Positions 59,878-64,000 of a stretch of 64,000 bases of DNA are shown here, in pieces. Origin of the DNA: Fischerella sp. CENA71 (lineage in GTDB: Bacteria > Cyanobacteriota > Cyanobacteriia > Cyanobacteriales > Nostocaceae); contig JANBVI010000053.1 in assembly GCA_024239075.1 (NCBI GenBank), positions 124,001 through 188,000 on the forward strand. The letters run 5' to 3'. The first letter of the stretch is position 1; each line of letters opens with the position of its first letter. The position numbers and the translations under genes are program-made. The notes under the pieces were generated by a model that saw nothing but the letters and a program-made list of their open reading frames with translations, searched no databases and was not told where the DNA came from.

Positions 59878-61965
59878 TTATAATGGTGCCAAATTATTGC
59901 GATTCACTTCAATAATTTCTGTATACTCAAATTCATTAGGACTTTGTCTGACCAGAGGATATCTTTCTCCTCCTAATTCGATATAATCTTGTTCACAATC
60001 AGGTTTAGAAGAATAATAAACCAAGATATATTCTCTACCAATTCTTTCAGCTATTTCTGCTTCTACTTCACCTCGCCATTGGGTTTTAGTTACTAACACC
60101 ACTAATTGATTTGCTAATTTAGGAATTACTCTCGCAATCTGACGGCGATTAATCACATCCAAACTACCAAAGGGTGAATCCATGACGATTGGTAAGGTAC
60201 TAGTATCTGGAACCATCAACATTCTTTTTTGACTCCATTCTCTTACCCTGTCGATAATTCCGCCGATAAAAGATAAACTGAGAATTTGATTTTCACCAGT
60301 GGAAGCAGCAACTGGTGATTCTATCCCTATTGTATTTTCTACTAGCGCCAGTTCGTATTTATCGCTGATTTTGGGAATGTAAGGTGTAAATGAGATTTCG
60401 CTAAATATTTCTTGGACTCGTTTTTCCAGCTGTAAACGAAATTGTTGTTCTTGGCGTGCTTTGACTAAATTTAATCTATCAATTGCATCTTGGGTAGCAG
60501 TAATCCGGCGTTGTGCTAGTGCTTGGCGTTCTTCGTTAAATTTTTGTCTCGTAATTTGCTTATTTAAGCTTTCAATTTCGGTTTTAGTGTTAGCAATTTG
60601 CTGTTGATTAGCGCCTTGTTCTAAGGTTAAATCAGTAATTTTCTCTTCTATTTCATCTAAACGCTTTTGTAAATTGCGAATTTCTTCACTAGGATCTTTT
60701 CGCAATCGTTCTTGAATACTATCTAAATCTGCTTCTATTTGAGAGATTGATTGTCTTAACTGATTGATTCCTACTTGTTCTCGATCTACTTCTTCCCAAA
60801 ATGCGATCGCTTGTTTATCAATTTCATCAACTTGAGCATTCATCCGAATCGCAGTTTCTTCTACTACCGATGAACCTGCTTGACCTAGCAATATTTTAAC
60901 ATTTGTGTGGGAGTGAGTTCCTTCATGTAATTCTGCGCCACAAATACAACGTTGAGAGTCGAGTAAATTATCTAAGAATTCCCGCGAAATTCCAGGAGTT
61001 AATTCACCACGTTGCTTTAAATGTTGGATAATTTCTCGAAATTGCAGTGTAGTTTCTGATAGTAAAACAGTATAGCCACGTGTGGAAATTGTTTTTTTTA
61101 GTGTTTCCCACTTTTTTTTCAATTCTTCTTGATTGCGAGTTTTTTGTGATTCTAAACTCTGTCGTCTTTCTTGTAATTCTTTAGCGGCGCTGAGTTCTCG
61201 TAAACGGTTACTAGTTTCTTTTTTGATAGTTTGCTGATATTCTAGTTCTTGCTTTATTTCTGTTTGACGAGTGTTAATTCGTTCAACTTCTTGCTCGATT
61301 TTGGCTTGTTGTTTGAGCAACTGTTTTGTTTCCGAATCACCAATAACTTTCAATTCGTTTTCTAGGGTTTTCTTAGCTTCGCTTAAATGTCTAATTGAGC
61401 GGTTAATTACCTCAACTCCTAATAAAATTTTCGTAGCTTCAGCAATTTCAGCTTTTTTATCAGAACGCACAATATGTTCTATGCGTTCTCCATCAAAGAA
61501 GAAATATTGATGTAAGCTGCTAGGTAAAATTTGATTGATAATATCTTCTAGATTTTGATTGGGTGGGACAAAATACCACGAACCATCATCTCTACCTACC
61601 CACATACTCAATTCTGTTTTACCGGGTTCAAAATCAGTTTCATTTTTGTAAACCCGACAAGCACGTTTAATGCGGTAGCGTTTATTATCATGTTCCCAGA
61701 CAATTTCTACCCAACATTCGATAGGTTGTCCAATTTTTGCTTCTGTGATCGCACGCTTATTTACTAATTGTTCTGATGAAGAAAAAGCCGCACTAAATTT
61801 TTCATAAAGCACCCAAGTAAATGCGTTCAAAAAACTAGTTTTTCCTGCGCCATTATTCCCATGAATTACTGTTGTGTTGTTAGCATCTCCATGAGCGAGG
61901 ATGACTTCTGGAGTTTTACCATAAAAGGAGCGAAAGTTGCATAATTTAATAGAAATTAACTTCAT
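59878..61965 (-). CDS. DndD-like SMC/Rad50-type AAA ATPase
   Basis: 695 residues. Walker A GNNGAGKT (36-43), the motif FFFDGER (155-161) characteristic of DndD-type proteins, long coiled coils (about 195-300 and 370-520), a hook-like CICG at 340-343, a signature-like STGENQILSLS (555-565) and Walker B PIVMDSPFGSLD (592-603). In DNA phosphorothioation systems DndD uses ATP to prepare DNA for sulfur transfer. Its start overlaps the preceding small gene (ATGA), so both are coupled. No dndE-like gene follows. An unrelated SMC-like defence ATPase remains possible. Confidence 0.78.
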   Translation of the reverse strand: MKLISIKLCNFRSFYGKTPEVILAHGDANNTTVIHGNNGAGKTSFLNAFTWVLYEKFSAAFSSSEQLVNKRAITEAKIGQPIECWVEIVWEHDNKRYRIKRACRVYKNETDFEPGKTELSMWVGRDDGSWYFVPPNQNLEDIINQILPSSLHQYFFFDGERIEHIVRSDKKAEIAEATKILLGVEVINRSIRHLSEAKKTLENELKVIGDSETKQLLKQQAKIEQEVERINTRQTEIKQELEYQQTIKKETSNRLRELSAAKELQERRQSLESQKTRNQEELKKKWETLKKTISTRGYTVLLSETTLQFREIIQHLKQRGELTPGISREFLDNLLDSQRCICGAELHEGTHSHTNVKILLGQAGSSVVEETAIRMNAQVDEIDKQAIAFWEEVDREQVGINQLRQSISQIEADLDSIQERLRKDPSEEIRNLQKRLDEIEEKITDLTLEQGANQQQIANTKTEIESLNKQITRQKFNEERQALAQRRITATQDAIDRLNLVKARQEQQFRLQLEKRVQEIFSEISFTPYIPKISDKYELALVENTIGIESPVAASTGENQILSLSFIGGIIDRVREWSQKRMLMVPDTSTLPIVMDSPFGSLDVINRRQIARVIPKLANQLVVLVTKTQWRGEVEAEIAERIGREYILVYYSSKPDCEQDYIELGGERYPLVRQSPNEFEYTEIIEVNRNNLAPL

Positions 61966-62129
61966 CGCACAGCATCCTTCACTATCCTTAAAATATCATC
62001 ATTGATATGGCTATTACTTTTTTTATCTAATCTGCTTTTTTCTAATTGCCATACTTGTTCAATAATTTGCCGTACCTCTGGAGGAGCAGTTATTATTGGT
62101 TCTTGAACATCATCTATATTATTTGTCAT
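61962..62129 (-). CDS. Small DNA-modification-associated protein
   Basis: 55 residues from ATG 62129 (MTNNIDDVQEP). The frame continues up to 62171, adding 14 residues encoded by heptamer repeats with two more in-frame ATG codons. Core: APPEVRQIIEQVWQLEKSRLDKKSN and HINDDILRIVKDAVR, helical. I recall small proteins of this type beside Dnd-like modification genes; function unknown. It overlaps the ATPase start by 4 bases. Confidence 0.65.
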   Translation of the reverse strand: MTNNIDDVQEPIITAPPEVRQIIEQVWQLEKSRLDKKSNSHINDDILRIVKDAVR

Positions 62130-62185
62130 TGGTAATTTGTCATTTGTCATTGGTAATTTGTCATTTGTCATTGGTAATTTGTCAT
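62121..62185. repeat. 21-base repeat spanning the small gene start
   Basis: Unit GTCATTGGTAATTTGTCATTT repeated about three times (three heptamers each). On the minus strand each unit carries an ATG, giving three possible starts in one frame. Confidence 0.75.
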
Positions 62186-62267
62186 TGGGAAGAGACTTGT
62201 TAAATAAATAATTCTCTCTTGTCTCCCCACACTCCCCACACTCCCTTGTCCCCGATCCCTAATCCCT

Positions 62268-63782
62268 TCAAATATCCAATAATCCATACCTTTTTTGCAA
62301 ATCAAGTAACTTAATTCTGGCTTCACCAGCATTATCTGCTAAATCAGCAAATTCTACAAAGCGTCGCAATTCTTTTCTTAATAAATTACGTTCTACTTCT
62401 AAAGTTTTTCTGTCTAAATCGGGTGGTAAAACAATCATGTCAAAAATTGTTGCTCGTTCTTTACCAGGATGAGGACGTAAAACTCGTCCGCGTCGTTGGA
62501 TAAATTGACGAGGGTTCCCAGAACTTGCCAAAATTACAGCAGTTTGAATTGCTGGAATATCTACACCTTCATCCAAACAGCGAATTGCAACTAAACCCTG
62601 TAATTCTCCACTTTCAAATTGACGACGTAAAATTTCTCTCTCTTCTAAAGAAGTTTGAGCCGTGTAGGTATTGATTTTGTAACCTAATTCTACTCCTAAA
62701 ATCTTGGCAACTTCTTTAAGTTGCTGTAAATTAGAACGCTGTCCTGCTTCTTGAGAACCGTCGCTACAATAGAACAGAGTATGAGTTGTTTCGCTACGAG
62801 TAGCCATTAGTTCACGCAACGCCTTGAGTTTATTTGCTGCTGCACCAATTAACCTAGCTCTTTGCATTAACAATGGTTTTAAATCTTCATTATCTTCAAA
62901 ATAATTGGGATATCCGTTTTCTTTTTCTCTATATAATAAAGCCTTACCTATTTTCTGGGTTATTTTTGCATAAGTACGGCTTTCGGTTTCCGTTAATTCT
63001 ACTAAAATTGGATAATAAAGATAATGAACTAAAGCACCTTGATTAATAGCATCTTTTAAAGTAAACTCTGGCTGGAGAACCGAACCAAAATAATTAAAGA
63101 CAGATTGGGTTCCAGTTTCATCAAAATATCTTTCTGGTGTTGCAGATAAAGCTAGGCGCAAACCGATACGTCGGGGTAAACTTTCTTCGAGTTTGGGTGC
63201 GCCTAAATTATGAGCTTCATCACCAATAATTAAAGTTTTTTCGGGAAAATATTTGATTTGAGATTGGAATCCATCACCGATTAAAGTGGAGTTAGTTGTA
63301 ATTATTGTGATGAATGGTTGTGAACCAGAATGGACATTATAAAGTTGACTAGAAAGTTGACTTTGCCAGTTGCGTAAGTTTTCAAAAGCTAAGATGGGTT
63401 GTAAATTAAATTTTTCACATTCTCGCGCCCATTGGGTGACAAGATGACGGTAGGGACACACTATCAGTAATGCTTGTAAGCGAATTTGTTTATATAACTC
63501 GCAAGCAACAGCAAGTGCAGTAATTGTTTTACCACTACCCGTTGCCATTTTTAGTGTACCTCTGCCGTTGTTGGCAAACCAATTATTGACAGCTTGACGC
63601 TGATATGGTCGCAATTGCAGATATACTGGCATTTGCGGACATCCTGGTAATGGTTGCTGAGTTTGGTAATTACCCTTACTTTCACCCGCAAACGGTAATT
63701 TCAGGCGATATTTTCCCGAAGGTTTATTAACTGTGGTTGTGAAAGTATTGATTGATCGGACTTTTGGCTGTATCAGATACAT
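62268..63782 (-). CDS. SF2 helicase of a Dnd-type modification/restriction locus
   Basis: 504 residues from ATG 63782; the upstream frame to 63968 is repeat sequence. Motif I ATGSGKT (80-86), DEAH (188-191), SAT (213-215) and motif VI QRRGRVLR (429-436). No nuclease domain visible. XPB/RAD25-like core with an N-terminal RPYQRQAVNNW. Helicases of this type are annotated as phosphorothioation-linked restriction factors; the two following genes support this. The rest of the operon probably lies right of the window. Confidence 0.8.
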   Translation of the reverse strand: MYLIQPKVRSINTFTTTVNKPSGKYRLKLPFAGESKGNYQTQQPLPGCPQMPVYLQLRPYQRQAVNNWFANNGRGTLKMATGSGKTITALAVACELYKQIRLQALLIVCPYRHLVTQWARECEKFNLQPILAFENLRNWQSQLSSQLYNVHSGSQPFITIITTNSTLIGDGFQSQIKYFPEKTLIIGDEAHNLGAPKLEESLPRRIGLRLALSATPERYFDETGTQSVFNYFGSVLQPEFTLKDAINQGALVHYLYYPILVELTETESRTYAKITQKIGKALLYREKENGYPNYFEDNEDLKPLLMQRARLIGAAANKLKALRELMATRSETTHTLFYCSDGSQEAGQRSNLQQLKEVAKILGVELGYKINTYTAQTSLEEREILRRQFESGELQGLVAIRCLDEGVDIPAIQTAVILASSGNPRQFIQRRGRVLRPHPGKERATIFDMIVLPPDLDRKTLEVERNLLRKELRRFVEFADLADNAGEARIKLLDLQKRYGLLDI

Positions 63783-64000
63783 TGATTGAGGAACGGGGAA
63801 CGGGGAACAGGGAAAGGGGATTGGGGATTGGGAGAAGACGCGGAGACGCGGAGACGCAGTGACGCGATGATGCGGAGAATCCATCAAAAATACTCTCCGT
63901 GTCTCCGTGTCCCTGTATCCCCGTGTCCTCCTTGTCCCCTTAACTACAAGTACGCCAGATACCCACAAGGGAACCCTGTACCTGTACCTGCATGGCTGGT
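63783..64000. repeat. G-rich repeats at the right edge
   Basis: GGGGAACG, GACGCGGA and the complementary CTCCGTGTC units. The complementary halves can form a hairpin. No gene seen before the edge. Confidence 0.6.

What the first reader, a model, noticed from the sequence alone, without database searches (positions are those of the whole stretch)
59878..63782. Helicase - small protein - SMC-like ATPase operon: partial Dnd-type system, apparently without dndE here
Seen: three minus-strand genes, the last two overlapping by ATGA. The ATPase has the DndD-like FFFDGER motif and a CxCG hook; the helicase is SF2. Known: Dnd systems (dndB-E with helicase or DptFGH partners) put sulfur in the DNA backbone. 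Inference: this is the downstream half of such a system, or an unnamed three-gene variant in which a small protein links helicase and ATPase. After the ATPase comes DUF3082, so dndE is not at its usual place.
Basis: partly seen in the sequence, partly recalled or inferred. Interest (0 to 1): 0.7.

Follow-up and report, generated by a model that had tools for sequence, protein, structure and literature searches.

The report
Split sulfur-DNA defence lacking its nuclease
The three genes are one half of a bacterial defence system that probably tells own DNA from foreign DNA by sulfur marks on the DNA backbone; the other half lies elsewhere in the same genome, and the helicase of this half lacks the DNA-cutting domain that such helicases usually carry.

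Summary
In detail: a minus-strand operon of SF2 helicase (62268-63782), small protein (likely start 62129) and CxC-hook ABC ATPase (59878-61965), the last two overlapping by ATGA. It is not an unnamed three-gene system but pbeA-pbeB-pbeC of the known PbeABCD (CxC-ABC) module, cut off from its partners. pbeD (TIGR04062 "dnd_assoc_4") and dndB-C-D-E lie together on another contig; several relatives carry them in one cluster. Two points go beyond what I found in print. (1) The helicase lacks the N-terminal HKD/PLD nuclease. Among 386 cyanobacterial genomes, the short helicase, CxC ATPase, PbeD and DndC occur together in 86, none of the four in 285, a part in 15. In 23 of the 86 no pair is linked, so the genes are kept together without linkage. 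Jian 2021, which searched DndFGH, held that cyanobacteria lack a PT restriction partner. (2) In the window's family the helicase sits directly behind lexA, which has a conserved LexA-type box. Best reading: a phosphorothioate-gated block on unmodified DNA that does not itself cut. Membership is well supported; defence role, non-cutting action and LexA control are inferred.

The parts
62268..63782 (-). PbeA-type SF2 helicase (TIGR04095) without the N-terminal HKD/PLD nuclease domain, 504 aa
   Evidence: TIGR04095 675.9 bits, cut-off 600, from residue 50; PADLOC PbeA 551 bits but only from profile position 238 of 682; no PLDc_2 in the Pfam scan; tblastn of four HKD domains finds nothing in the window; dN/dS 0.08-0.15
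61962..62129 (-). PbeB-type small protein, 55 aa (the ORF to 62171 has a repeat-derived start)
   Evidence: homologues at the corresponding place in 10 other loci; start argued from L184; ATGA overlap with the ATPase gene
59878..61965 (-). PbeC-type CxC ABC ATPase, 695 aa, Walker A GNNGAGKT, CxC hook at residue 340
   Evidence: PADLOC PbeC 1178.7 bits against best DndD 156; CxC present and grouped with PbeC loci in a tree
63940..64000 (-). 3' end of lexA, whose stop lies 157 bp upstream of the helicase start; rest of lexA and its LexA-type box lie outside the window (L009:5941-6648, box L009:6582-6594)
   Evidence: (TIGR00498 206.6 bits)

Best explanation
The three genes encode PbeA (helicase part only), PbeB and PbeC, the effector half of a phosphorothioate (PT) defence system. 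DndC-D-E with a cysteine desulfurase put sulfur into the host DNA backbone; dndB-C-D-E are on another contig together with pbeD. The Pbe complex (CxC ABC ATPase, PbeD, small protein, helicase) then acts on DNA without the PT pattern. Because the helicase has no HKD nuclease, I propose that the complex stops foreign DNA by loading, translocating and blocking replication rather than by cutting, as reported for haloarchaeal DndCDEA-PbeABCD. A separate PT-binding-type HNH gene (contig C66 here) may add cutting in some strains. Shown: identity of the parts, the split, the co-occurrence, the missing domain, purifying selection. Inferred: complex formation, defence role, PT gating in cyanobacteria, non-cutting action, any LexA control.
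For: Family scores. dndB-C-D-E and TIGR04062 on C4; one dndC and one DndE-family match in the genome. lexA-pbeA-pbeB-pbeC-pbeD-dnd in one cluster in relatives. TIGR04062 or its relative at the pbeD place in haloarchaeal and bacterial pbe loci. Co-occurrence over 386 genomes: all four genes 86, none 285, part 15; within the order helicase/dndC 87/2/6/10, p 1.6e-8; genera by majority 48/1/2/5, p 3e-5. 23 of 86 keep all four with no linked pair (all six pairs looked at by eye in the positions). Short helicase frames of 451-600 aa in 89 genomes. Archaeal PbeABCD stopped viral replication with viral DNA left intact (PMC6459918: abstract, passages, section 8).
Against: No experiment in cyanobacteria was found. 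The archaeal experiment used a PbeA that has a PLD domain, so 'non-cutting' there is not 'nuclease-free' here. The NAR 2024 authors argue that Pbe systems cut. G051 keeps the helicase without the other three, G070 lacks dndC, and three genomes have dndC and an HNH match but none of the Pbe genes (G058, G080, G211). Shared descent in one order inflates the co-occurrence. Cysteine desulfurase and DndFGH were not searched in this genome.
Confidence: 0.68

Rival explanations
1. The module does cut: a nuclease encoded elsewhere, chiefly the PT-binding-type HNH protein (NF045808-like), replaces the missing HKD domain in trans.
For: The own genome has one such gene on C66. It is found in 40 of 386 genomes, 37 of them with dndC, and in several it lies next to pbeD.
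Against: 57 of 94 genomes with dndC have no match at E 1e-20, so it is not the general replacement. 0 of 386 genomes have a match over the family cut-off. G193 has both an HKD helicase and an HNH gene.
Confidence: 0.25
2. A genome-maintenance role: the helicase, XPB/RAD25-like and placed behind lexA, serves DNA repair, and Pbe with Dnd handles damage or oxidative stress rather than phages.
For: Best solved relatives are RAD25/XPB. lexA-helicase tandem with a LexA-type box in 11 of 11 loci looked at. G051 keeps the helicase alone. 42 of 43 family genomes have it at 600 bits or more, unlike the patchy spread usual for defence genes.
Against: Helicase and dndC are kept and lost together in the order. 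Outside the family lexA is beside it in 1 of 11 loci. Homologous pbe loci sit on plasmids.
Confidence: 0.2
3. A decaying remnant: nuclease domain lost, cluster broken up, no longer functional.
For: Domain loss and split; G385 has stops in both helicase and dndC.
Against: Purifying selection; long open frames in 89 genomes; the same split in 4 of 4 congeners.
Confidence: 0.05

Closest known systems
DndCDEA-PbeABCD of Haloterrigena jeotgali (Xiong 2019, PMC6459918; abstract, passages, section 8 seen)
   Same: Gene order helicase, small protein (66 aa there), ATPase; a fourth gene of about 150 aa; partnership with dndC-E.
   Different: PbeA there has a PLD-like domain, absent here; dnd and pbe are adjacent there, split here with pbeD on the dnd side. 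Its own protein sequences were not compared.
CxC ABC-ATPase systems (NAR 2024, PMC10853773; passages, sections 14 and 16 seen)
   Same: CxC hook, SF2 helicase, small protein, coupling with Dnd.
   Different: The paper finds HKD fused to the SF2 helicase in the vast majority; here it is missing. It says that CxC ATPases are universally linked to their DndE-like partner; here and in many relatives the gene taken as pbeD is unlinked. 'cyano' does not occur in its main text.
DndBCDE-DndFGH
   Same: The modification half (dndB-C-D-E) is of this kind.
   Different: The effector here belongs to other families; DndFGH is reported absent from Nostocales (PMC8569181, passages) and was not searched here.
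Rad50/SbcC
   Same: ABC head and coiled coil with a cysteine hook.
   Different: Far lower scores (61.1 and 43.8 bits), 695 aa, CxC instead of CxxC; the genome has its own SbcC-like protein of 1009 aa with CPLC.

Membership tests
PbeABCD / CxC-ABC system | CxC-hook ABC ATPase distinct from DndD | tested here: met
   CxC at residue 340; CxC in 18 of 19 PbeC-type rows (not L. plantarum), in 0 of 5 DndD rows; grouped with Ruegeria/haloarchaeal PbeC at 0.955. PADLOC PbeC labels alone are not specific.
PbeABCD / CxC-ABC system | SF2 helicase of the PbeA/TIGR04095 kind | tested here: met
   675.9 bits, cut-off 600
PbeABCD / CxC-ABC system | HKD/PLD nuclease fused to the helicase (reported for the vast majority) | tested here: not met
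   short helicases also in Halorhabdus, Natrinema, Pseudanabaena and L. plantarum plasmid loci, so typical rather than strictly defining
PbeABCD / CxC-ABC system | Small protein gene between helicase and ATPase genes | tested here: met
PbeABCD / CxC-ABC system | pbeD next to the ATPase gene | tested here: not met
   Present in the genome but on C4; adjacent or close in several relatives
PbeABCD / CxC-ABC system | PbeD is a DndE homologue (literature claim) | tested here: inconclusive
   No DndE family listed for five genes at the pbeD place, hhalign below 1%; AlphaFold model too poor (mean pLDDT 42.9)
DndBCDE PT modification | dndB, dndC, dndD, dndE in the genome | tested here: met
   TIGR03183 707.8, TIGR03185 729, TIGR03184 140.4, all over cut-off; dndB only by the DGQHR domain model, 191.2
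DndBCDE PT modification | Sulfur in genomic DNA | not testable with these tools
   needs mass spectrometry
DndFGH restriction module | dndF, dndG, dndH genes | not tested
Canonical DndD | Score over the TIGR03185 cut-off | tested here: not met
   161.9 against 245.85; the genome's DndD on C4 scores 729

The most novel reading that the evidence does not exclude
In one whole cyanobacterial order, PT modification is not a solitary (antioxidant) mark but one half of a near-universal, long-kept defence whose effector has lost its nuclease for good and works by a non-cutting block of replication; in the window's family the helicase is wired to LexA, so that DNA damage or phage attack raises it. Such a system would settle the dispute whether Pbe systems need to cut.
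Probability: 0.3. Interest if true: 0.8.

Novelty: new variant of a known kind. Interest (0 to 1): 0.6.

Why it matters
Two published positions conflict: Pbe stops viruses without cutting (Xiong 2019), or its HKD domain argues for cutting (NAR 2024). Nuclease-less Pbe helicases in 89 of 386 sampled cyanobacterial genomes are a natural experiment on that question. They also bear on the proposal that PT began in cyanobacteria as an antioxidant system because no restriction partner was found there (Jian 2021, which searched DndFGH). And the family named only "DNA phosphorothioation-associated protein 4" gets a place: it is the pbeD-position gene in bacteria, with relatives at that place in haloarchaea.

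Tried and rejected
Canonical dndE missing downstream: rejected; the gene that follows pbeC in compact loci is pbeD. Rad50/SbcC: rejected by scores, length and hook. Assembly artefact for the split: rejected; 4 of 4 congeners have pbeABC with no TIGR04062 or dndC match in the 4 kb or more held beyond the ATPase, and 6 of 6 Fischerella/Westiellopsis/Pelatocladus loci have pbeD-dnd with no helicase or ATPase in the flank held (L083 has only 1.5 kb and L129 6.1 kb on that side). PADLOC name as proof: rejected; the genome's true DndD scores best to a model called PbeC. PbeD-DndE homology: sequence and model gave nothing usable; no fold search was made because the model was poor. HNH as universal nuclease: rejected, 57 of 94 dndC genomes have no match. 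L010 was fetched and not read.
Full report
WHAT IS THERE. The window is G000:C53:124001-188000 of a 7.47 Mb, 95-contig genome. The closest named loci for PbeD are Fischerella muscicola, Westiellopsis prolifica and Fischerella sp. PCC 9431 (96-98%), so this is a Fischerella-like cyanobacterium (inference). Three minus-strand genes are confirmed: helicase 62268-63782, small gene 61962-62129 (the longer ORF to 62171 has a repeat-derived start) and ATPase 59878-61965 with an ATGA overlap. Selection is purifying: helicase dN/dS 0.08-0.15 and ATPase 0.06-0.12, each against 4 congeners; small gene 0.17-0.23 against 3 of 4. The fourth (L184) was dropped because the script started in the upstream repeat; its gene is intact.

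WHAT IT IS. The helicase passes TIGR04095, "DNA phosphorothioation system restriction enzyme" (675.9 bits, cut-off 600). PADLOC calls it PbeA, but only from profile position 238 of 682 on. The ATPase gets 161.9 bits for DndD (cut-off 245.85), 61.1 for Rad50 and 1178.7 for a PADLOC PbeC model. PADLOC's PbeC label alone is not safe: the genome's true DndD also scores best to a PbeC model (966 against 807.8 for DndD). The safer evidence is the CxC hook: present in 18 of 19 PbeC-type rows (not in L. plantarum, which has CxxC) and in 0 of 5 DndD rows. In the tree the window protein lies in a clade of cyanobacterial PbeC with full support (1.000), which joins Ruegeria, Pontibrevibacter, Halorhabdus and Natrinema at 0.955. 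The 5 DndD form their own clade (1.000), but the deepest branches are unresolved: two second-type ATPases (G253, G116) fall next to DndD with support 0.27.

WHERE THE REST IS. In the 13 kb listed to the right (lexA, argF, then others) I saw no dnd-like gene; 4 of those ORFs were scanned. The genome's only dndC match and only DndE-family match are on C4, with TIGR04062 (197.3 bits), a DGQHR protein taken as DndB (191.2), DndC (707.8), DndD (729), DndE (140.4) and a dnd-related putative methyltransferase (696.3). In relatives the halves form one cluster: argF-lexA-helicase-small-CxC-TIGR04062-dndB-dndC-dndD-dndE in L060 and L061; L062 and L070 show the same up to dndD, where the stretch ends, with extra ORFs between and no dndB match in L070. 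The full order is also seen in named species such as Amazonocrinis nigriterrae (L085) and Anabaenopsis elenkinii (L092); 29 of 80 named loci hold helicase, ATPase and dndC within the held flank. The window's split, between pbeC and pbeD, is shared by 4 of 4 congeners and fits 6 of 6 Fischerella-group loci (two with short flanks). One congener, G389, has a contig of the same length (6,735,698) as Fischerella sp. PCC 9431's scaffold; if they are the same, helicase (about 2.20 Mb) and pbeD (about 4.07 Mb) lie 1.9 Mb apart on one scaffold.

THE MISSING FOURTH GENE. In G170 the order is helicase-small-ATPase-TIGR04062, four compact genes; next to them lie only pieces resembling dndC and dndD, the latter cut by the end of the stretch. 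In 72,556 plasmid records 31 match the G170 ATPase and 5 match its TIGR04062 protein. In Ruegeria and Pontibrevibacter the TIGR04062 gene overlaps the ATPase gene; in Rhizobium and Arthrobacter the matched pieces lie 200 and 110 bases apart; in Pseudanabaena it is 1.6 kb on. In four haloarchaeal loci the gene directly after the ATPase, annotated hypothetical, matches TIGR04062 at 5.3e-14, 1.7e-10, 1.3e-11 and 8.4e-12, all below its curated cut-off; the L. plantarum gene there gives only 0.061. Profile-profile comparison of 8 TIGR04062 proteins with the four haloarchaeal ones gives 98.9%. So TIGR04062 is the pbeD-position family; the H. jeotgali PbeD itself (152 aa) was not compared. The literature calls PbeD a DndE relative (clade 2; PMC10853773, sections 14 and 16 read). 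I could not see this by sequence, and the AlphaFold model was too poor to use (mean pLDDT 42.9).

THE NUCLEASE IS MISSING. Helicases with frames near 700 aa have an N-terminal PLD-like domain of about 250 residues: PLDc_2 20.9, 30.6 and 27.4 bits in G193, G170 and G253 (cut-off 27), and HxK with GSxNxS visible in G193, G170, G253, G081 and Halobaculum. The window helicase has 49 residues before the TIGR04095 match. tblastn with four such domains (E up to 1) against the window, L009, L019, L021, L023-L051 and L060-L079 hits only loci with long forms. In 386 phylum genomes 89 have a TIGR04095 match of at least 600 bits in an open frame of 451-600 aa, and 11 have a frame of 640 aa or more; 5 of these 11 also have the short form. 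Short forms also occur in plasmid loci of Halorhabdus (477 aa), Natrinema (469), Pseudanabaena (476) and L. plantarum (455), so the lack is not unique to this order. PLD matches of the own genome are on C28, C13, C20, C27 and C9, none on C53 or C4.

KEPT TOGETHER WITHOUT LINKAGE. Over the same 386 genomes: short helicase 89, dndC 94, TIGR04062 95, CxC ATPase 93; all four 86, none 285, part 15. The 86 all lie in the window's order (86 of its 105 genomes in the sample). Layout of the 86: fully clustered 27; no linked pair 23; helicase apart from ATPase-pbeD-dndC 17; helicase-ATPase apart from pbeD-dndC, as in the window, 8; others 11 (links of 12-15 kb, three pairs by script; for the 23 I looked at all six pairs by eye). 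Many genomes are drafts, so contig ends inflate the unlinked classes, but single-contig ones (G002, G066, G121, G187, G368) are scattered too. Fisher values are inflated by descent: helicase/dndC p 2.7e-75 over the phylum, 1.6e-8 within the order, 3e-5 by genus majority (48/1/2/5); for PbeD/dndC by genus it is 0.0066. The 15 partial ones: G051 helicase only; G070 no dndC; G097 no ATPase found; G054 (helicase broken) and G326 no short helicase; G159 ATPase and PbeD only; G058, G080, G211 dndC only; G385 dndC with stops, a helicase with stops, no ATPase or PbeD; G011 and G268 PbeD traces with stops; G060 an ATPase piece; G170 and G193 with long helicases (G193 with all the rest, G170 without a dndC match).

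LEXA. In the 11 loci of the window's family examined closely the helicase follows lexA by 40-230 bp, and an exact LexA-type box (10 identical, 1 with one change) lies near the lexA start; it is the only exact box in 10 of the 11 loci. The consensus was recalled, not taken from a call; with one mismatch allowed such boxes are not rare (11 found in L009, 6.0 expected). Among 30 helicase loci with 1.5 kb flanks, lexA is beside the helicase in 18 of 19 of the family and 1 of 11 outside it. Co-transcription is inferred.

MECHANISM. By homology with the haloarchaeal system, PT marks self DNA and the Pbe proteins hinder unmodified DNA. There viral DNA stayed intact while its replication was strongly reduced; pbeB, pbeC and pbeD were essential, and a pbeA deletion left a little resistance (PMC6459918, passages and section 8). 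A PbeA reduced to its motor fits that picture, though that archaeal PbeA has a PLD domain. The rival is cutting in trans by the HNH protein (own copy on C66; 40 of 386 genomes, 37 with dndC).

NOVELTY. Jian 2021 (PMC8569181; abstract, passages and section 7 seen) states that PT restriction is absent in Cyanobacteria and infers an antioxidant origin; it searched DndFGH, and 'pbe' does not occur in its main text. The main texts of the two Pbe papers do not contain 'cyanobacter'; Xiong 2019 does note a PbeC-like "SMC protein" in Hydrococcus rivularis, a cyanobacterium by recall. Their supplements were not open to me and may list such loci. Searches for PbeABCD, phosphorothioation with cyanobacteria or Nostoc, the TIGR04062 name, PbeD, CxC/HKD and dndD with lexA showed no title or abstract describing this arrangement (listings only, except the papers named). 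TIGR04095 and TIGR04062 are already named as PT-linked by NCBI, so the kind is known. New as far as I could see: the nuclease-less, dispersed, order-wide form and the pbeD assignment of TIGR04062.

Noticed in passing
L009:6582-6594 (G000:C53, right of window) and 10 further loci of the family: Conserved LexA-type box AGTACTAATGTTC (one locus AGTACAAATGTTC) by lexA, with the Pbe helicase directly downstream of lexA; possible LexA coupling of a defence helicase.
   Followed up: partly
L019:6302-8284 (G000:C4): A PADLOC PbeC model scores higher than the DndD models on true DndD (966 against 807.8 bits), so PADLOC PbeC calls need the CxC hook as a check.
   Followed up: partly
L176:1411-2388 (G000:C66): Single HNH protein resembling the PT-DNA_restrict family (125.1 bits, cut-off 180); its like lies near pbeD or dndC in several relatives.
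   Followed up: partly
window 62120-62190: Short direct repeat (AATTACCAATGACAAATGACA type) that extends the small ORF artificially.
   Followed up: partly
L009:8288-9009: Short ORFs with weak matches to a defence DNA methyltransferase (17.6 bits) and a group I intron endonuclease (16.5 bits), possibly remnants of a restriction-modification system.
   Followed up: no
L163 and L165: Haloarchaeal plasmid pbe-like loci lie near DNA methyltransferase genes; no dnd gene is annotated in the stretch shown.
   Followed up: no
L068:7594-11337, L067:4524-8636 (G340, G042): Very large ORFs (1247 and 1370 aa) directly behind the helicase in two relatives; not identified.
   Followed up: no
G385, C1:491366-495051: Helicase and dndC lie side by side, both with stops, while ATPase and PbeD are not found: joint decay.
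   Followed up: no
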